Below are positions 6,506 to 56,985 of a DNA stretch of 64,000 nt, in pieces; positions within the stretch are counted from its first letter, which is position 1; every line of letters begins with the position of its first letter. The DNA comes from Magnetospirillum sp. (GTDB lineage: Bacteria > Pseudomonadota > Alphaproteobacteria > Rhodospirillales > Magnetospirillaceae). Below the pieces are notes generated by a model, which was not told the origin of the DNA, ran no database searches, and saw only the letters and a list, made by a program, of their open reading frames with translations. Location: contig JANQAI010000011.1 of the NCBI GenBank assembly GCA_024707145.1, forward strand, positions 806,001 through 870,000, read 5' to 3'. A program made the position numbers and the translations under genes.

Positions 6506-7711
6506 TCACGCGAACGACAGGTCGTCGCGTCCGACGGCGAGCCGGGCGGCCGCCAAGCCGGAAGCAATAGCCGCTTCCATGGTACAGGGCCAGGGCGAGG
6601 CCATCCAGTCGCCCGCAAGCCATAGCCAGGGAACGTTGGTGACAGGGCCGGGGCGTCGGCGCACCACCTCGGGGGTATGGGCCAGGGTGGCGCGCCGTTC
6701 CTTGATCACCCGGACGGGTGGGACGCGGGCAGGAGCGCGCAGGATGGGCGCGATCTCGGCCCACAGAATCCCGGCCACTTCTTCGGCGGACCGTTCGGCC
6801 AGGCGGTCGGCGGCGGAAACGGTCACCGACACCACATCGTCGCGCACCGACAGCCACTGGCCGGTGCCACCCACCAATCCGAGGAACGGCTGGCCGCCGG
6901 GCAGGGGCACCGGCTGGTCGAGGCGGAAATGGGCATTGACGATGGCGGCGCTGGAAAAGGCCGGCAGGTCGGGCAGCAAGGGGGCGACGGACCAGGGCGG
7001 CAGGGCGAGAATCGCTCGATCACGGCTGCCCAGGGCGATGGCTTCATCATCAAATTCAAGGCTCTGTCGGCCGATCTTCACCAGGCGGCGGCCGAAATTC
7101 AGCTCGGCGCCGAAGGTCGCCAGGGTCGCTTCGGCGGGGGCGGCGAAGACCGCCGACAACCCGCCCGCCGCCACGTAGGGGCGCATGGCGCTCTTGCCGC
7201 CCAGCAGTACCTCGCGCAGCACGGTTCCCAGCAGGCGGGCCGAAGCCCGCTCCGGCGGAGTGTTGAGGATGGCCTCGCACAGCGGCCGCCACAGGGTGCG
7301 GTAGGAGCGGGTGCGGCCGAGGCGGTGATCCACCGTCTGGCATGTGGAGGTCCACGGCAGGCCCAGTGCCAGCAGGGTTTCCACCGCCCCGGCGCTGGGG
7401 CGGCCGGGCAGCACGGTCCAGTGACGCCCGCTGGCGAGGTCGAGGAAGGGAAAGGCCGGTTCCACCGGCGCCAGCGCCTCGATGCCGCCGATGGCGGCGG
7501 CGAACGACAGGGCGTGGCGGTTGGCGCCCAGCAACAGGTGGGTCCCGTTGTCCACCACGCGATCCAGCCGCTGGCAGCGGAACGAGCGGCAGCGGCCGCC
7601 GGCCTGCGGTGCCGCTTCGTGGAGGGCCACCCGCCAGCCGGCCTTGACCCCGCCTAGGGCCGCGGCGAGGCCGGCCAAGCCGGCGCCGACCACATGGAGG
7701 GCCGGGCTCAC
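6506..7711 (-). CDS. hpnE: Hydroxysqualene dehydroxylase HpnE
   Basis: This 401-residue FAD-dependent amine-oxidase-fold protein begins with a dinucleotide-binding motif, [13 protein letters not shown]. It contains GGRCRSF, and near the C-terminus [23 protein letters not shown], which together mark HpnE. HpnE reduces hydroxysqualene to squalene, completing the HpnCDE route to hopanoid precursors. The GTG start at 7711 overlaps the hpnD stop (GTGA), showing translational coupling. The frame stays open upstream to about 8173, but that part is a shadow of hpnD. Confidence 0.92.
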
Positions 7712-8511
7712 GATCCCGCCGCCGCCACGCGCAGGGCGATCCACAGCCGGGCCAGCGGCCCCAGGCGGGGCGGCTGCTCGGGACGGCGCCAGCGATCCTG
7801 GATCAGGCGGGACAGCAGGCGGCGATAGGTGGCCATCATCACCATGGCGGGGAACAGGCGGGCACGGCCCAGCCGGGCCAGCTCGGCCTCGGCCCGTTGG
7901 AAATCCTCCTGCGCCAGTTCGGCCACCATGGCGCAGGCGGCAGGCAGGGCGGGATGGGGCAGCACCGCCTGAGGGGTGTGCACCACCATGCCGGCGGCGT
8001 GCAGCGCCTCGGCCGGCAGGTACAGCCGGCCCAGCCGGGCATCCTCGGCCACGTCGCGCAGGATGTTGGTCAGTTGCAGCGCCTCGCCCAAAGTGACAGC
8101 CAGGTCGCCGGCCTCCGGGCGGCCGAAGATGCGCACGGCCAGCAGCCCCACCGACCCCGCCACCCGGCGGCAATACAGGCGGAGCTCGGTCAGGCGTGGT
8201 GCCGTCAACGGCCCATTGACGTCGCTCTCCATGCCGTCGATCAGCGCTTCCAGCTCGGCGCGGGGCAGATCATAGAGGCGGATGGCCGGGGCCAGGGTGG
8301 CCAGGGTGGGTTCCAGCGCCACTCCGGTCTCGAACAGGGCGGCCACGGCGCCGCGCACCACCGCCAGGCGGGCGCGGCGTTCCTCCACCGAGCCGGGACC
8401 GTCGGCGATGTCGTCGAGCATGCGGCAATAGCCGTACAGGGCGAACATGGCCTCGCGCCGGGGCCGGGGCAGCAGGCGCATGGCCCAATAGAACGAGGAC
8501 CTGCCGCTCAT
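7708..8511 (-). CDS. hpnD: Presqualene diphosphate synthase HpnD
   Basis: HpnD condenses two farnesyl diphosphates to presqualene diphosphate. The 267-residue protein shows both aspartate-rich motifs of the squalene/phytoene synthase family: DDIAD at 33-37 and DVAED at 153-157, with YGYCRMLDD and LTNILRD around them. The ATG at 8511 overlaps the hpnC stop (ATGA) and follows the usual N-terminus MSGRSSFYWAMRLLP. A second upstream ATG at 8529 is less likely. It lies between hpnC and hpnE in one operon. The reading frame runs on through hpnC only because of the hpnC frameshift. Confidence 0.93.
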   Translation of the reverse strand: MSGRSSFYWAMRLLPRPRREAMFALYGYCRMLDDIADGPGSVEERRARLAVVRGAVAALFETGVALEPTLATLAPAIRLYDLPRAELEALIDGMESDVNGPLTAPRLTELRLYCRRVAGSVGLLAVRIFGRPEAGDLAVTLGEALQLTNILRDVAEDARLGRLYLPAEALHAAGMVVHTPQAVLPHPALPAACAMVAELAQEDFQRAEAELARLGRARLFPAMVMMATYRRLLSRLIQDRWRRPEQPPRLGPLARLWIALRVAAAGS

Positions 8512-9360
8512 CCGCGCAATCCGCGCCATAATCCGGCAAGCACGGCGCCGAGGTAATCGCGCGGCGATAGCTTGACCTTGGCCGCCAGCGGGTCGTTCCG
8601 GCGCAGCCGCTCGGACAGCTTTTCCGCCACCACCAGGGTGATGGCCGCCTGCACGCGCAGGCGCCGGTCGCGGATCCGGCCGGGCAGGGGGCTGGCCATG
8701 TCGATCAGGCCGTCCACATGATCCAGGGTGATGTCGAAGACACGGCGCAGGCTCGGGGCCGGTATGGTCGTCGGCCAGGGCGTCGTGGGGCAGCCCGGCC
8801 ATGCGCAGCCAGTCTCGCGGGATGTAGACGCGCCCCAGCGCGCCCAGGTCGTCGCCGCAATCCTGCAGGTGGTTGAGGACCTGAAGGGCGGCGCACAGAG
8901 CGTCGGCGGGGGCGGCCGTGTCGGCAGCCTCGCCGTGCAATTGCAGCAGGAAACGGCCCACCGGCGCCGCCGAGAAGCGGCAGTAATTCATCAGGTCGCC
9001 CCAGTCGCGACAGTGGTTCACCAGGGCGTCGCGGCGGAAGGCCTGCAGCAGCTGGGCGGCGTGGCCGAGCAGCAATCCGTCGCCGTTCACCGCCTCGTGC
9101 AGGGCCAGCGCGGAGTCGGTGCCGGGAGCGTCGCCGTGGCCGGCCAGGGCGGCTTCCAGCGCGTCCAGCTTGGCCAGCTTGATGTCGGCGGGCAGGGCGG
9201 GGTCGTCGGCGATGTCGTCGGCGGTACGGGCGAAGGTATAGAACGCCATCACCTGGCGCCGTACGGCGGCGGGCAAGATCAGGGACGCCACCGGGAAGTT
9301 CTCGTCGGCGGCAGTCTTTCCGGATGTTGCTGGCAAGGCGACAACGGCGGCCCTGGGCAA
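8508..9360 (-). CDS. hpnC: Hydroxysqualene synthase HpnC, frameshifted in this sequence
   Basis: HpnC converts presqualene diphosphate to hydroxysqualene. The N-terminal two thirds has ENFPVAS, the aspartate motif DDIAD at 48-52, and YCRFSAAPVGR. The last third, ending AVLAGLWRGLRG, is in another frame. The shift lies near 8750, where minus-strand GAGCCTGCGC would read GAGCTGCGC after removal of one C, giving continuous ELRRVFDITLDHVDG and a protein of about 283 residues. The TTG start at 9360 is favoured by a GGGAGG ribosome site 5 bases upstream. hpnC heads the hpnCDE operon. Without the repair, the frame reads into hpnD and mimics a 550-residue fusion. Confidence 0.85.
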
Positions 9361-48451: not shown

Positions 48452-49815
48452 TTATTCCGCCGCCCGTCCCAGGATGCCGTCGGCCTGCGCCAGCCAGGCG
48501 GGCAGGGCGGCGCGGGCGCGTTCGCTGTAGAGCTTCTTGCGGTCGCGTCCCTTGACCCGCTTGCCCCGTTCGTCCCGTTCGGGTGCCGGCGGGAACAGGC
48601 CGAAATTGATGTTCATGGGCTGGTAGGTCTCGGCATGGGCGCCGCCGGTCACATGGGCCAGCATCGCCCCCAGAGCGGTGACGTCGGGGGTGGGGGCAGA
48701 GCGGTGCCCAGCCGCTCGGCGGCGGCGAAGCGGCCGGCCAGCAGGCCGATGGCGGTGCTTTCCACATAACCCTCACAGCCGGTGATCTGCCCGGCCAGCC
48801 GCAGGCGGGGCTGCGCCTTGAGCGTCAGGTCGGGCGCGAGCACGCGTGGGCCGTTGACGAAGGTGTTGCGGTGGACGCCGCCCAGGCGGGCGAACTCGGC
48901 GTTCTCCAGACCCGGGATCATGCGGAAGACGCGAGTCTGCTCGCCGTGGCGCAGCTTGGTCTGGAAGCCCACCATGTTGTAGAGGGTGCCCAGCGCGTTG
49001 TCCTGGCGCAGCTGGATCACCGCATAGGGCTTGGGGCCATGGGGATTGGTCAACCCCACCGGCTTGCCCGGCCCGTAGGCCAAGGTTTCGCGGCCGCGTT
49101 CCGCCATCACTTCGATAGGCAGGCAGCCTTCGAAATAGGGGACGTCCTTTTCCCACTCGTGGAAAGGCACCTTCTCGCCGGCCAGCAGGGCGTCGATGAA
49201 AGCGTAGTATTGGTCCTTGGTCAGCGGGCAGTTGATGTAATCCGAGCCCTCACCCTTGTCGTAGCGCGACTGGAACCAGGCCTTGCCGAAGTCGATGCTG
49301 TCCTTGGTGACGATGGGGGCGATGGCGTCGAAGAAGGACAGCGAGTCCTCGCCGGTCAGGGTGCGGATGGCCTCGGCCAGGGGCGGCGAGGTGAGCGGTC
49401 CGGTGGCGATCACCACCGAATCCCACTCCTCGGGCGGCAGGCCGGCGATCTCCTCGCGCAGGATGGTGATATTGGGCTGCCCCGCCAATTCGCGCTCCAC
49501 CATGACGGAGAACCCGTCGCGGTCCACCGCCAGGGCGCCGCCGGCGGGGACCTTGCAGGCATCGGCCGCGCGCAGGATCAGGGAATCGGCCCGGCGCAGC
49601 TCTTCATGCAGCAGGCCCACCGCATTGTAATCGGCGTCGTCGGAGCGCAACGAGTTGGAGCAGACCAACTCGGCCAATCCCTGGCTCTGGTGGGCCGGCG
49701 TGGTGCGGTGGGGGCGCATCTCGTGCAGGACCACGGGAACGCCGGAACGGGCGAGCTGCCAGGCGGCTTCGCAGCCGGCCAGCCCGCCGCCAATGACATG
49801 GACGGTGCGGATCAT
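48452..49815 (-). CDS. trmFO: tRNA uridine-54 C5-methyltransferase TrmFO, frameshifted in this sequence
   Basis: TrmFO uses methylenetetrahydrofolate and FAD to make 5-methyluridine at tRNA position 54. The main part has [19 protein letters not shown], the cysteine in [11 protein letters not shown], and [12 protein letters not shown]. The C-terminal part ([17 protein letters not shown] to 48452) is in another frame. The shift lies in the C-rich run near 48680-48700 on the minus strand, where one extra C would join them into about 454 residues. The ATG at 49815 gives the usual start; an ATG at 49827 adds four residues. It is a single gene, convergent with the preceding operon. Confidence 0.87.
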
Positions 49816-49832
49816 GGCCCAGGACATAAGCC

Positions 49833-50654
49833 GTGGCGCGTTTCCTGTCCAGCATCTTGGCCTGGCTTCCGCTTGATTGGCGGCGGCGGCGCGCCACATT
49901 TGCTTCGACCATGCATGCCTTGCTCGACCTGATCGGCAGGTGGCTCAGTTCAAGGTGCGCCGTCGGCCAGCCGCGGCGGGCCATGCGCCTGAACGGGTTC
50001 GACTTCGCCGGGTCTTCGCGCCCGCGCTACCTGCGCGGCGGCGACTATCACGACATCTTCGTGCCGCCCGACCGGGCCAGCATGGCGGTGGCCGTGGGCG
50101 ACGTCGCCGGGCATGACGCCCTGGCCGCCCATCTGATGCGGCTGGCCGGCGCTCTGCTCAAGCGGCGGCAGGCCGTGCCCGGCGAACTGGCGGAACTGAT
50201 GGAGGGGGTCAACAGGGAACTGATGCCCCGCATGCGGGCCGGCCGGTTCATGACCCTGTTCCTGGCGGTGATGGTGGCGGGAGACCGCTCCATCCACTGG
50301 GTCAGCGCCGGCCACGGGCCGGTGCTGGCCTACGATCCGGAGGCCGACAGCTTCGCCGAGGTTCCCGGCCAGGACATCCCGTTGGGGATCGACCCTGACT
50401 GGCGCTACCACGAGATGGACCATGTGGGGTGGTCGGCCGGAGCGCTGCTGGTGGTGGCCACCGATGGAATCTGGGAGCAGCGCAACAAGCAGGGCGAGAT
50501 GTACGGACGCAAGCGCCTGATGCGGGCGGTGCGGACCATGCGGGAGGCCCCGGCGGCGGCCATCGTGGCGGCGGTGGAAGCCGATGTGGATGCTTTCCGC
50601 CAGGGCGTGCCGCCAGGTGACGACGCCACCCTGGTGGTGGTGAAGGCGATCTAG
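49833..50654 (+). CDS. PP2C-type (SpoIIE/RsbU-like) serine phosphatase
   Basis: The 273-residue protein has the PPM-type phosphatase motifs: [44 protein letters not shown] and GDDATLVVV. The metal-binding aspartates are present, so activity is predicted. Such proteins usually dephosphorylate an anti-sigma antagonist or a similar partner; no such partner is encoded nearby. There is no sensor domain, only a short N-terminal stretch. The GTG at 49833 is one option; an ATG at 49911 (MHALLDLIG) would shorten it by 26 residues without touching the core. Confidence 0.86.
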
Positions 50655-50755
50655 CCTTTTCGGCCATAGGCCCATCGGAAAGGCCATTTCTTCCAGCCGC
50701 GTCTTGGGGTATAAGCAAGCACCGCACCACCCAATCGAGTGGGAAAAACACTACC

Positions 50756-51160
50756 ATGGCCAAGAAGTATTATGTCGTGGGCGGCGAGTACGCCGACACC
50801 GGCTTCACGCAGATCGCCGCCGGACACAAGGAAGAGCGTTTCGGTCCGTTCGACGAGCACGAGGCGCATGTGTGCTGGCGCGCCTTGACCGGCAAGACCG
50901 TGGACAACGCCATGATCCGCTATTTCATCCGCTCCGATGACAATTCGGCGAGCGAGGAGTGGTTCGTGGTGGGCGGCGAGTATGCCGATACCTCCTTCGA
51001 GGTGATCGCCGTCGGCAAGCAGCTGGAGAGCTATGGTCCGTTCGGCCGCCAGGATGCCCTGAACAAGTGGCGCGAGCTGACCGGTAAGACGGTGGACAAC
51101 GCCATGGTGCGTTACGACCTGTGCTCCGCCGCCGAGCTCCTGACCCGTAAGGCAGGCTGA
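50756..51160 (+). CDS. DUF4170 protein with two tandem repeats
   Basis: The 134-residue protein consists of two copies of the DUF4170 domain: residues 1-65 and about 69-134. Each has a VVGGEYADT opening, a GPF turn, and a TGKTVDNAM-[IV]-RY ending. Single-domain relatives of about 75 residues are known in alphaproteobacteria; their role is unknown. No signal peptide, membrane segment or metal motif is visible. A TATAAG at 50710-50715 may be the -10 element of its promoter. The [2Fe-2S] gene follows after a structured gap. Confidence 0.82.
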   Translation: MAKKYYVVGGEYADTGFTQIAAGHKEERFGPFDEHEAHVCWRALTGKTVDNAMIRYFIRSDDNSASEEWFVVGGEYADTSFEVIAVGKQLESYGPFGRQDALNKWRELTGKTVDNAMVRYDLCSAAELLTRKAG

Positions 51161-51169
51161 AAAGACAGG

Positions 51170-51256
51170 CGTTTCAGCCAATTGCCCTATCTTTTATAAG
51201 GGCTCTAGATTTGCGCTGCAAAAGGGGTATCTCCGTTTACAGGAATTGCTGAAACG
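51170..51256 (+). promoter_or_regulatory. Long-range inverted repeat forming a structured leader before the [2Fe-2S] gene
   Basis: CGTTTCAGC-C-AATT at 51170-51183 pairs with AATTGCTGAAACG at 51244-51256, a 13-base stem with one bulged base. Inside are two smaller hairpins, GCCCT/AGGGC (about 51184-51203) and TTGC/GCAA (51211-51221). Together they resemble a three-way-junction RNA. The 3' arm ends directly before the GGAGG ribosome site of the next gene, so folding could affect translation. Confidence 0.4.
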
Positions 51257-51265
51257 GAGGGCCCC

Positions 51266-51583
51266 ATGGCGCCCAAGTACCACGCCTTCGTCTGCACCAC
51301 CAGCCGCCCGGCCGGTCATCCCCGCGGCTGCTGCACCTCGAAGGGTGGCGGCCAGCCGCTGTACGACCGGCTGCTGCAGAAATTCCAGCAGGGAATGCTG
51401 TGGGAAAAGGGCGTCAGCATCGCCCAGGCCAGCTGTCTCGGTACCTGCAATGCAGGGCCGGTGATGGTGGTCTATCCCGACAACGTCTGGTATCAGATCA
51501 AGACCGCCGAGGATATCGACGAGATCGTCGCCTCGCATTTCGGTCAGGGCAAGCCGGTGGAGCGTCTGGTCTTCAATCCGTAA
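51266..51583 (+). CDS. Thioredoxin-like [2Fe-2S] ferredoxin domain protein
   Basis: The 105-residue protein has the cysteine pattern of thioredoxin-like [2Fe-2S] ferredoxins: C10, then C22/C23, and C57 with C61 (CLGTC). The GCC pair leaves one cysteine to spare. It would carry electrons or act in assembly; the partner enzyme is not visible. The ATG at 51266 has GGAGGG upstream. It is a short single gene ending just before the convergent CULT gene. Confidence 0.88.
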   Translation: MAPKYHAFVCTTSRPAGHPRGCCTSKGGGQPLYDRLLQKFQQGMLWEKGVSIAQASCLGTCNAGPVMVVYPDNVWYQIKTAEDIDEIVASHFGQGKPVERLVFNP

Positions 51584-51599
51584 GGCCGTTCGACCGGGC

Positions 51600-51974
51600 C
51601 TAGCCCGGCCGTTCCACCAGCATGGGGCGGATCAGGCCGAAGAACACCGCCGGCGCGCCGGAACCCTCGTACATCCAGCCCACATGGGCGCCGCAGCTCT
51701 TGCACAGGGCGATGCGCCAGGTGAAGCCCCGGAACCAGGTGAACTGGTCCGAGGCGTTGCCGACGCCGATGGCGCCCGGCGCATCCTTGAAGCAGACGAC
51801 ACGGAACAGCACGCCGGCGGGATTGAACACCACGTGCTCATGCTCGCCGTTCATGCGGATGCCCAGGTTGCCCCGCGTCATGTAGGCGCCGCAGCAGGCG
51901 CAGTAATAGGCGACGCCGCCCGGCCGTTCCTCCCCGTCGATGTGGGTGATCAGGTCGGCGGCGTCGCGCGGCAT
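51600..51974 (-). CDS. Single-domain CULT (cereblon-type) protein, MsCI4-like
   Basis: The 124-residue protein is a stand-alone CULT domain, the fold that binds thalidomide in human cereblon. Zinc ligands are C25, C28, C91 and C94 (CACCG and CKSCG). The three aromatic-cage tryptophans are W80, W86 and W100, matching W79, W85 and W99 of MsCI4 from Magnetospirillum gryphiswaldense. GEHEHVVFNPAG is also shared. Bacterial CULT proteins bind uridine-like and imide compounds; their biological role is unknown. The ATG at 51974 starts 4 bases after the parvulin stop, with no clear ribosome site, so it is probably translated by coupling. Confidence 0.9.
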   Translation of the reverse strand: MPRDAADLITHIDGEERPGGVAYYCACCGAYMTRGNLGIRMNGEHEHVVFNPAGVLFRVVCFKDAPGAIGVGNASDQFTWFRGFTWRIALCKSCGAHVGWMYEGSGAPAVFFGLIRPMLVERPG

Positions 51975-51978
51975 GGGG

Positions 51979-52299
51979 TCAGCCCGTCCGCTGGATCAGG
52001 TGGTAGCCGAACGGCGTCTCGATGACCTCCGAGACCTCGCCCGGCTGCAGGGCGAAAGCGGCCTGGTCGAATTCGCGCACCATGGCGCCCTTGCCGAAGA
52101 AGCCCAGGTCGCCGCCTTCCTCGCCCGAGGGACAGTCCGAGTGCTGGCGCGCCAACTCGCCGAAATCGGCGCCGTTGGCCAGTTCGGCCTTCATGGCGGT
52201 GATGCCCTCCAGCGCCTCGGTCTTGGTGCGCGTGGCCGTCGAGCGCATGGAGCCCTGGTACATGAGCAGAATGTGCGAGGCGCGGATTTGCGACGCCAT
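51979..52299 (-). CDS. Parvulin-type peptidylprolyl isomerase
   Basis: The 106-residue protein is a minimal single-domain parvulin. It has ASHILLMYQGS, ANGADFGELARQHSDCPS, GGDLGFFGKGAMVREFDQAAF, and the C-terminal ETPFGYHLIQ. It speeds cis-trans isomerisation at prolines. It has no signal peptide, so it is cytoplasmic, unlike SurA or PrsA. The ATG at 52299 has GGGAGG 7 bases upstream. The CULT protein gene follows directly on the same transcript. The frame stays open upstream to 53223 but only as a shadow of the next gene. Confidence 0.93.
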   Translation of the reverse strand: MASQIRASHILLMYQGSMRSTATRTKTEALEGITAMKAELANGADFGELARQHSDCPSGEEGGDLGFFGKGAMVREFDQAAFALQPGEVSEVIETPFGYHLIQRTG

Positions 52300-52373
52300 G
52301 GAGAACCTCCCGTTAACGCTATGAACGAAAGCGCGACCATAACAGGCCACGGGGGAGGGCTGTCGATGCCAAA

Positions 52374-53165
52374 TTATCCGGCCAGCAGGTGGATCAGGAT
52401 GGCGGCGGTGACCGAGACGTTGAGGGACTGGACACGGCCCGAGCCGGGCAGGGTGGCCACTTCCTCGCAGGCGGCCAGGGTGGCCGGCGGCAGGCCTTCC
52501 TCCTCGTTGCCCAGCACGATGGCTAGAGGGCGGTCGCCCTTGGTCATCACCTGGGCCAGCGGCCGGTGGGCGCCCAGGGCGGTGCCGACCACCCGGTAGA
52601 ACGGCCGCAGCCGCTTGAGCTCCAGGGCCAGATTGCGCACCCGCACCACCTCGACCCATTCCAGCCCGCCCTCGGCGACTCGGAAGGCGGCCTCCGAGGG
52701 CAGGGCCTGGCCGGGATGGTCGGAAACCAGCAGGCGTTCCAGGCCGAAGAAAGCCATGGTGCGGGCGATGGCACCCAGGTTGTGGGGATTGCCGACGCCG
52801 TCCAGGATGACCAGCGGCTGTCCGCGCTTGGCCCATGTCTTGGCCTGTTCGGCATCGAAGGCGGGCACCGGCTTGGGGTGGGCGACGGCGACGATGCCGC
52901 CGTGCAGGGGGCTGCCGGCGATCTTCGTCAACTCGTCGGTTGTCACCAGACGGTAGGGCTTGCGGCCGGCAGCCAGCAGCTTGCAGAACTCGCCCGTCTG
53001 CGGTCTGGTGCGGTCGTCGAAGAACAGCCGCAGCACCCGCCCCGGGTCGTGGGCGAACAGCGCCTGCACCGCCGGCAGTCCGGCGACCTTCTCGGTCTCT
53101 TCCTGGAGTGGGCGGCGCGGCGGCTGGCCATGCTGCGGCTTGTGCGGGCGGGGAGGTCGTGCCAT
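52374..53165 (-). CDS. TrmH/SpoU-family RNA 2'-O-ribose methyltransferase
   Basis: The enzyme methylates ribose of rRNA or tRNA with S-adenosylmethionine using the trefoil-knot SPOUT fold. Signatures are [29 protein letters not shown] and [15 protein letters not shown]. An N-terminal substrate-binding domain (about 20-95) precedes it. The exact nucleotide is not known. The ATG at 53165 gives 263 residues; an ATG at 53177 adds four. Both starts lie near the divergent pseudouridine synthase start. Confidence 0.9.
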
Positions 53166-53167
53166 GG

Positions 53168-53761
53168 ATGACTGCATTCGATATTGGAGCGAGTGTTTTG
53201 CCCCGCCTGATCCTGTTCAACAAGCCCTATGACGTGCTGACCCAATTCACCGACCGCGAGGGCGGGCGGCAAACGCTCAAGGATTTCGTTCCGGTGCCGG
53301 ATGTTTATCCTGCCGGCCGGCTGGATCGCGATTCCGAAGGGCTGGTGGTGTTGACCGATGATGGCGGCCTGATCGCCCGCATCGCCAGTCCCCGCCACAA
53401 GCTGCCCAAGACCTACTGGGCCCAGGTCGAGGGCGTGCCGACCGAGGAGGCGTTGGAGCGGCTGCGCAACGGCGTGGTGCTGAACGACGGGCCGACCTTG
53501 CCGGCGGGGGCGCGGCTGATGGACGAGCCGGCCGGGCTGTGGCCACGCAACCCGCCCATCCGCTGGCGCGCCAACATTCCCACCCGCTGGATCGAACTGA
53601 CCCTGCGCGAGGGGCGTAACCGCCAAGTCCGCCGCATGACGGCGGCGGTGGGCTTTCCCACGCTCAGGCTGGTCCGCTGGGCGGTGGGGGATTGGACGGT
53701 GGAGGGACTGGCGCCGGGAGAATGGCGCGCGGTGGCGGCGCCGACGGGGCGCCGCCGCTAA
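53168..53761 (+). CDS. rRNA large-subunit pseudouridine synthase, RluE-like
   Basis: The 197-residue enzyme makes pseudouridine in 23S rRNA. It belongs to the RsuA/RluE group, lacking an S4 domain. The catalytic aspartate is in [15 protein letters not shown], and other signatures are [11 protein letters not shown] and [17 protein letters not shown]. The ATG at 53168 was chosen; a TTG at 53198 is possible. It starts immediately next to the divergent methyltransferase gene, so both probably share a regulatory region inside their coding starts. Confidence 0.88.
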
Positions 53762-53944
53762 TCAGCGCTTGGCGGGGAAGCCGAGGGAATGGGCCTTCAG
53801 GCCGGCGGTGGCGGCGCGGGTCATGGCCACGCCCATGGCGAAATGGGTCGACAGGTAGGGGCTGGTCTTCACTTGGCGGGTGCCTTCGGCCCGCTCTTCG
53901 TTCATGGCTTCGTCGATCTCGCGGAGTTCGGCCGGCCCCAGCAT
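53762..53944 (-). CDS. Small hypothetical protein of 60 residues
   Basis: I do not recognise this protein. It begins MLGPAELREIDEAMNEER and ends LGFPAKR, mostly charged and helical in prediction, with no signal or membrane segment. The case for a gene is contextual: AAAGGGA lies about 8 bases before the ATG, and a good minus-strand promoter pair lies at 54024-54053 in an AT-rich leader. The stop abuts the pseudouridine synthase stop (convergent). It could also be a leader ORF or a spurious frame. Confidence 0.5.
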   Translation of the reverse strand: MLGPAELREIDEAMNEERAEGTRQVKTSPYLSTHFAMGVAMTRAATAGLKAHSLGFPAKR

Positions 53945-54023
53945 GGCGAATATCCCTTTCTACCCTGAAGTGAGGAGCGAGGCTGGAAATAATATTTCCG
54001 CTTCGCCGCACGTTGTAGAAAGC

Positions 54024-54141: not shown

Positions 54142-56985
<2,844 letters not shown>

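What the first reader, a model, noticed from the sequence alone, without database searches (positions are those of the whole stretch)
51600..52299. Cereblon-type CULT protein translationally coupled to a cytoplasmic parvulin
A single-domain CULT protein with all zinc cysteines and the three cage tryptophans starts 4 bases after the stop of a minimal parvulin, on one transcript. The biological role of bacterial CULT proteins is unknown. A conserved link to a prolyl isomerase would suggest work on peptide or protein substrates with cyclic imide, proline or damaged C-terminal features. Human cereblon recognises C-terminal cyclic imides arising from asparagine or glutamine cleavage, so a bacterial damage-sensing or folding pair is conceivable. 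This functional link is inference.
Basis: partly seen in the sequence, partly recalled or inferred. Interest (0 to 1): 0.72.

Follow-up and report, generated by a model that had tools for sequence, protein, structure and literature searches.

The report
Bacterial cereblon-like gene beside prolyl isomerase
The window carries a cousin of the well-studied bacterial stand-in for human cereblon, the thalidomide target, right behind a small protein-folding gene; the pairing is real but mostly reflects a gene order inherited in one bacterial family, not a dedicated partnership.

Summary
On the minus strand, a 124-aa single-domain CULT protein (51600-51974) starts 4 nt after the stop of a 106-aa parvulin (51979-52299). 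It is a relative of MsCI4, the Magnetospirillum gryphiswaldense protein used as a crystallographic surrogate for human cereblon: E 4e-34, model within 0.9 A, four zinc Cys and three cage Trp kept.

The adjacency is not unique to this strain, but it belongs to one lineage. Of 82 CULT-bearing genomes among 317 of the order, 21 carry this parvulin within 7 kb: 19 of 20 in the window's family and 2 of 2 in a second family; none of the other 60 was seen linked. In the window's family the genes sit in a conserved block (uvrA-rlmB-parvulin-[slot]-ferredoxin-DUF4170-trmFO). The parvulin keeps that block where CULT is absent, PPK2 separates the two in six genomes, and the convergent ferredoxin is as tight a neighbour of CULT as the parvulin. 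At 67 other named loci no neighbour recurs broadly.

Conclusion: a new member of a known family in a syntenic slot, plausibly co-transcribed, with little evidence for a dedicated pair. MsCI4's own gene follows a tandem double parvulin; I found this in no paper searched, and it is directly testable.

The parts
51600..51974 (-). Single-domain CULT protein, 124 aa, MsCI4-type (zinc C25 C28 C91 C94; aromatic cage W80 W86 W100 with Y102)
51979..52299 (-). Minimal, apparently cytoplasmic parvulin (PpiC/Pin1-type PPIase domain), 106 aa
51975..51978 (-). 4-nt intergenic gap (CCCC) between the parvulin stop TGA and the CULT ATG
52374..53177 (-). SpoU/RlmB-like RNA methyltransferase, upstream member of the conserved block (below NCBIfam's RlmB cut-off)
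51266..51583 (+). Thioredoxin-like 2Fe-2S ferredoxin, convergent neighbour of CULT, other flank of the slot (below curated cut-offs)
50756..51160 (+). DUF4170 protein with two matched stretches, block member
48649..49899 (-). GidA-family protein, most likely TrmFO, block member
   Evidence: TrmFO name is inference
54142..56985 (-). UvrA, far end of the block

Best explanation
The CULT gene is a relative of MsCI4: a stand-alone beta-tent domain pinned by one zinc, whose three-Trp cage binds a ring with an imide face (shown in the literature for MsCI4 with thalidomide, uridine and deoxyuridine; inferred here). It most likely works as a small cytoplasmic reader that folds around an imide-bearing ligand, either a uracil-type metabolite or a cyclic-imide end on a damaged peptide (inferred). 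The parvulin is a separate general PPIase that belongs to a conserved housekeeping block. CULT sits in a variable slot of that block next to it, so the two are probably co-transcribed in this strain by position, not because they act as a dedicated pair.
For: Family identity; 79 of 80 named bacterial loci keep all four Cys and three Trp. Linkage by lineage: 19 of 20 CULT+ genomes in family f1 and 2 of 2 in f25 linked within 7 kb, 0 of 60 others seen linked, though 34 of those 60 carry the parvulin (input). Block kept without CULT: 9 of 12 fetched CULT-less parvulin loci. Slot holds other genes: PPK2 between parvulin and CULT in six genomes, UPF0114 in four of them, an EAL protein in G021; nucleoside deoxyribosyltransferase in G002 and CULT-less G010. 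The convergent ferredoxin lies within 170 nt of CULT in 12 of 17 f1 loci where both were found (16, the window), against 10 of the same 17 for the parvulin within 500 nt. Among 119 called neighbours from 67 named loci without the parvulin, the commonest Pfam family matches 10 and Rotamase is not among the 25 families shown.
Against: In f25 (G060, G143) the parvulin stays the neighbour of CULT, 0.5-0.9 kb away and divergent, although the block markers were not found around it (L085 holds only 6.4 kb); plain block synteny does not explain that. Co-occurrence of the two genes exceeds chance when kinship is ignored (55 of 82 CULT+ against 101 of 235 CULT- genomes have the parvulin, p 2e-4). Matched stretches only 7-9 nt apart recur in five f1 genomes (G000, G005, G006, G008, G009). 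Fragmented assemblies may hide links in other families. The ligand and role of any bacterial CULT are not shown by anything here.
Confidence: 0.72

Rival explanations
1. Dedicated pair: in Magnetospirillaceae and f25 the parvulin and CULT work on the same substrates, for example CULT captures proteins or peptides with a cyclic imide at a damaged C terminus and the parvulin refolds or presents them.
For: Linkage in 21 of 22 CULT+ genomes of f1 and f25, with an orientation change in f25; 4-nt gap in the window; six genomes incl. the MsCI4-type G008 have a tandem two-domain parvulin beside CULT (Pfam on G008).
Against: No linkage seen in 60 other CULT+ genomes although 34 of them have the parvulin; the parvulin is present without CULT in 18 f1 genomes; PPK2 inserted between them in six genomes; CULT truncated beside an intact parvulin in G002.
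Confidence: 0.15
2. Folding helper: the parvulin assists folding of CULT itself, isomerising the conserved Asn51-Pro52 bond; MsCI4 is known to be partly unfolded without ligand.
For: Asn51 in 80 of 80 and Pro52 in 77 of 80 named loci; about a third of MsCI4 folds only on ligand binding (PMC4449219, abstract and passages).
Against: CULT is kept in 27 of 82 genomes without this parvulin at E 1e-25; [quoted passage not shown] that this was without its parvulin is inferred.
Confidence: 0.05
3. A narrower form of the best explanation: CULT handles small molecules only (uracil, uridine or similar rings) with no protein partner or substrate; the parvulin is irrelevant.
For: MsCI4 binds uridine and deoxyuridine like thalidomide (PMC4449219, PMC4287342, passages); contexts of CULT vary by clade.
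Against: I saw no pyrimidine gene recur beside CULT; the nucleoside deoxyribosyltransferase near CULT in G002 also sits in the slot of CULT-less G010. The authors of MsCI4 report no biological context for uridine recognition (PMC4449219, passage).
Confidence: 0.3

Closest known systems
MsCI4 (MGR_0879, cereblon isoform 4 of Magnetospirillum gryphiswaldense; PDB 4v2y and about 60 entries)
   Same: Same single-domain architecture, zinc and cage residues, fold (0.9 A); the near-identical G008 copy (121 of 124) lies in the same block and also follows a parvulin directly
   Different: 49% identity over 106 residues to the G008 copy; there the parvulin is a tandem two-domain protein, in the window a single domain
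Human cereblon thalidomide-binding domain
   Same: CULT fold, zinc and Trp cage
   Different: The window protein has no LON domain or DDB1-binding part; 24-26% identity in the structural alignments
Pin1-type parvulins (plant Pin1At 1j6y, human Pin1 domain)
   Same: Among the best PDB sequence matches; the SHIL, SDC and H-I/L stretches align with 1j6y
   Different: No WW domain; in the alignment to 1j6y two of three loop basic residues are Met, so phospho-Ser/Thr-Pro preference is doubtful (role of these residues recalled)

Membership tests
CULT domain family | Two CxxC pairs for one structural zinc | tested here: met
   C25, C28, C91, C94; zinc itself not observed
CULT domain family | Three-tryptophan aromatic cage | tested here: met
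   W80, W86, W100 align with MsCI4 W79, W85, W99
CULT domain family | Beta-tent fold | tested here: met
   Predicted model pLDDT 86.7; rmsd 0.9 A to 4v2y and 5amh
CULT domain family | Binds thalidomide, uridine or another imide ring | not testable with these tools
   Inferred from MsCI4
Cereblon proper | LON domain and DDB1-binding region with C-terminal CULT | tested here: not met
   The ORF holds CULT alone, 124 aa
Parvulin PPIase (PF00639/PF13616) | Rotamase domain | tested here: met
   7e-27 and 1e-26, nearly the full profile
Pin1 (phospho-specific) | WW domain and basic phosphate-binding triad | tested here: not met
   106 aa, domain only; triad mostly replaced in the alignment to 1j6y (triad recalled)
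Dedicated parvulin-CULT gene pair | Adjacency conserved beyond one lineage | tested here: inconclusive
   Linked in 2 of 15 CULT-bearing families of the order, opposite orientation in the second; 0 of 60 other CULT+ genomes seen linked
Dedicated parvulin-CULT gene pair | Gained and lost together | tested here: not met
   18 f1 genomes with parvulin and no CULT, G002 with truncated CULT, 27 CULT genomes without this parvulin at E 1e-25
Dedicated parvulin-CULT gene pair | Co-transcription and interaction | not testable with these tools
   Only the 4-nt gap and orientation speak for one transcript

The most novel reading that the evidence does not exclude
In Magnetospirillaceae and one further family, CULT and an adjacent (in the MsCI4 clade duplicated) parvulin form a bacterial quality-control pair for proteins with cyclic-imide or otherwise damaged ends, an ancestral counterpart of what cereblon does with ubiquitin.
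Probability: 0.13. Interest if true: 0.75.

Novelty: new member of a known kind. Interest (0 to 1): 0.3.

Why it matters
MsCI4 is behind about 60 PDB entries, many of them complexes with cereblon ligands, and the papers read give no bacterial role for it. Knowing that its gene, like the one here, sits in a fixed block behind a parvulin gives a cheap genetic test of that role in its own organism. The survey also shows what not to over-read: here the parvulin looks like inherited context, and I found no neighbour of CULT shared across bacteria.

Tried and rejected
Considered and set aside: (1) CULT fused to another domain: long open frames in L151-L155 and L119 run upstream of the domain without a plausible extra domain and look like noncoding reading of GC-rich DNA, judged by eye. 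(2) CULT in viruses: 43 pattern matches in viral contigs, none a relative. (3) A common neighbour other than the parvulin: clade-specific only (HemD 7, tetrapyrrole methylase 6, EngA GTPase 5, PlsY 4 of 119; Rdx/SelW-like next to CULT in 7 loci). My gene calls for this tally were a rough composition score, so some neighbours are missed or false. (4) Co-evolution by trees (30 CULT and 39 parvulin rows, short proteins, many open forks): the main clades agree, but the window's CULT pairs with G021 (96/88) while its parvulin groups with G003 and G001, which lack CULT (96/81). This could mean different histories of the two genes; I do not rest on it. (5) RNA elements at 50000-54000: none in Rfam at gathering scores. 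(6) Literature: searches; the only paper with parvulin and cereblon (PMC13029591, listing and start of abstract) is about PIN1 degraders. PMC4287342, PMC4449219 and PMC8900816 were seen as passages only.

Failed steps: one search printed nothing (shell pipe), redone; one search failed on an import, redone.

Full report
What is there. On the minus strand, 52299-51979 encodes a 106-aa parvulin and 51974-51600 a 124-aa CULT protein; between the TGA of the first and the ATG of the second lie four bases. The parvulin matches Pfam Rotamase over nearly the whole profile (7e-27), and its best match among solved structures is plant Pin1At 1j6y, with PrsA and human Pin1 domains next; it has no WW domain and no visible leader. 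The CULT protein matches MsCI4, cereblon isoform 4 of M. gryphiswaldense, at 4e-34, and human cereblon at up to 3e-10. It keeps the two CxxC pairs and three cage Trp; these are kept in 79 of 80 named bacterial CULT loci, the exception being L110 with Cys in place of the third Trp. An AlphaFold model (mean pLDDT 86.7, residues 3-18 unreliable) lies 0.9 A from MsCI4-thalidomide 4v2y and 5amh.

Is the adjacency conserved? I searched 317 genomes of the order for CULT (82 positive at E 1e-10) and for the parvulin (156 positive at E 1e-25); 55 have both. By place on the same contig, the window's family f1 has 20 CULT+ genomes: 10 with the parvulin within 500 nt on the same strand (matched stretches 7-368 nt apart), 7 at 0.6-1.8 kb (one of them G002 with a truncated CULT), 2 at 4.9 and 6.6 kb, and G022 without the parvulin. 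Family f25 has 2 CULT+ genomes, both with the parvulin 0.5-0.9 kb away on the other strand. Of the other 60 CULT+ genomes, in 13 families, 34 have the parvulin; none was seen linked (the three on one contig are 221-888 kb apart; the rest lie on different contigs, and for three the place was not printed). Draft assemblies could hide some links. In a named set from GTDB contigs (the best 80 of 268, overlapping the f1 genomes), 13 of 80 loci have the parvulin within the DNA held, up to 10 kb each side; some loci are cut short by contig ends.

The MsCI4 gene itself. G008, same genus as the window, has a CULT 121 of 124 identical to the PDB MsCI4 sequence, so it is M. gryphiswaldense or very near it. 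The gene directly follows a parvulin ORF with two Rotamase domains. The same tandem parvulin lies next to CULT in G005, G006, G009, G011 and G012. In the CULT family paper (PMC4287342; passages seen) a term count found no occurrence of parvulin, isomerase or operon, and a full-text search for parvulin plus cereblon found one unrelated paper. So I found no report of this neighbourhood; the library holds open-access papers only.

Why the link is probably positional. Markers from the window mapped onto f1 loci show an old block: uvrA, rlmB-like methylase, parvulin, slot, 2Fe-2S ferredoxin, DUF4170, trmFO-like, lpxB (UvrA and LpxB confirmed). Of 12 fetched loci with the parvulin and no CULT, 9 keep ferredoxin, DUF4170 or trmFO on the far side of the slot (G003, G004, G007, G010, G013, G014, G015, G016, G019); in G001 the contig ends at the parvulin, and G027 and G052 (the latter from another family) show no other marker. 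A search for CULT remnants found none in the slot of these 12 (weak hits lie elsewhere). The slot also takes other genes: PPK2 between parvulin and CULT in six genomes (G018, G029, G034, G150, G153, G156), with UPF0114 after it in four of them, an EAL protein in G021, and a nucleoside deoxyribosyltransferase in G002 and in CULT-less G010. In G002 CULT is cut off after about residue 75 and runs into a phage-type integrase gene, while the parvulin is intact. As a control neighbour, the convergent ferredoxin, which cannot share a transcript with CULT, lies within 170 nt of it in 12 of 17 f1 loci where both were found (the window and 16 loci), against 10 of those 17 for the parvulin within 500 nt.

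Outside these families. For the 67 named loci without the parvulin I took the nearest called genes on each side (119 proteins; rough gene calls) and scanned them. No family recurs broadly: AAA_22 10, HemD 7, tetrapyrrole methylase 6, EngA GTPase 5; Rotamase is not among the 25 of 142 families listed. Recurring neighbours follow clades, such as Rdx/SelW-like genes in seven Rhodospirillales-type or proteobacterial loci and a HemD-type gene in seven loci, six of them named Desulfobulbus or Desulfobulbaceae. This is what a stand-alone gene in varied contexts looks like.

What speaks for a link. f25 keeps the two genes as divergent neighbours without the block markers. Co-occurrence exceeds chance if kinship is ignored: overall 55 of 82 against 101 of 235 (p 2e-4), in f1 19 of 20 against 18 of 35 (p 9e-4), outside f1 and f25 34 of 60 against 82 of 199 (p 0.04; this split assumes 3 f25 genomes in the set). 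These are not corrected for descent. A dedicated pair is therefore not excluded; I give it about 0.15.

How it most likely works. Shown elsewhere for MsCI4 (PMC4449219, PMC4287342, passages): the cage binds thalidomide, uridine and deoxyuridine, and about a third of the domain folds only on binding. Inferred here: the window protein does the same and serves as a small cytoplasmic reader of an imide-bearing ring, whether a uracil-type metabolite or a cyclic-imide peptide end. That human cereblon reads C-terminal cyclic imides is recalled, not read here. The parvulin probably acts as a general prolyl isomerase; two of three loop basic residues of Pin1-type enzymes are Met in the alignment to 1j6y, so phospho-specificity is doubtful.

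Verdict. A correct observation and a new member of a known family, with a functional link that the survey weakens. Its best use is as a test bed: M. gryphiswaldense can show whether CULT and parvulin share anything.

Noticed in passing
L071, L078, L079, L086, L087, L093, L094: A gene about 0.3-0.4 kb downstream of CULT clusters across these seven loci; the three copies scanned are Rdx family (SelW-like), and PlsY lies upstream in the two scanned.
   Followed up: partly
L035 (G002) 7216-8977: CULT truncated near residue 75 and running into a phage-type integrase gene, after a nucleoside deoxyribosyltransferase; a VapBC-like pair (by eye) follows.
   Followed up: partly
L016, L012, L014, L009, L013, L015 (genus g1): Tandem two-domain parvulin, seen in 6 genomes of the MsCI4 clade; the second domains form one clade in the tree.
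   Followed up: partly
L084, L091, L097, L098, L102, L109, L112: CULT follows a HemD/tetrapyrrole-methylase-type gene in these loci, six of them Desulfobulbus or Desulfobulbaceae by name.
   Followed up: no
window 50756-51160: DUF4170 protein with two matched stretches of the domain in tandem, conserved beside the ferredoxin in the block.
   Followed up: no
L110 10001-10294: CULT of a MAG labelled Caenispirillum bisanense has Cys in place of the third cage Trp.
   Followed up: no
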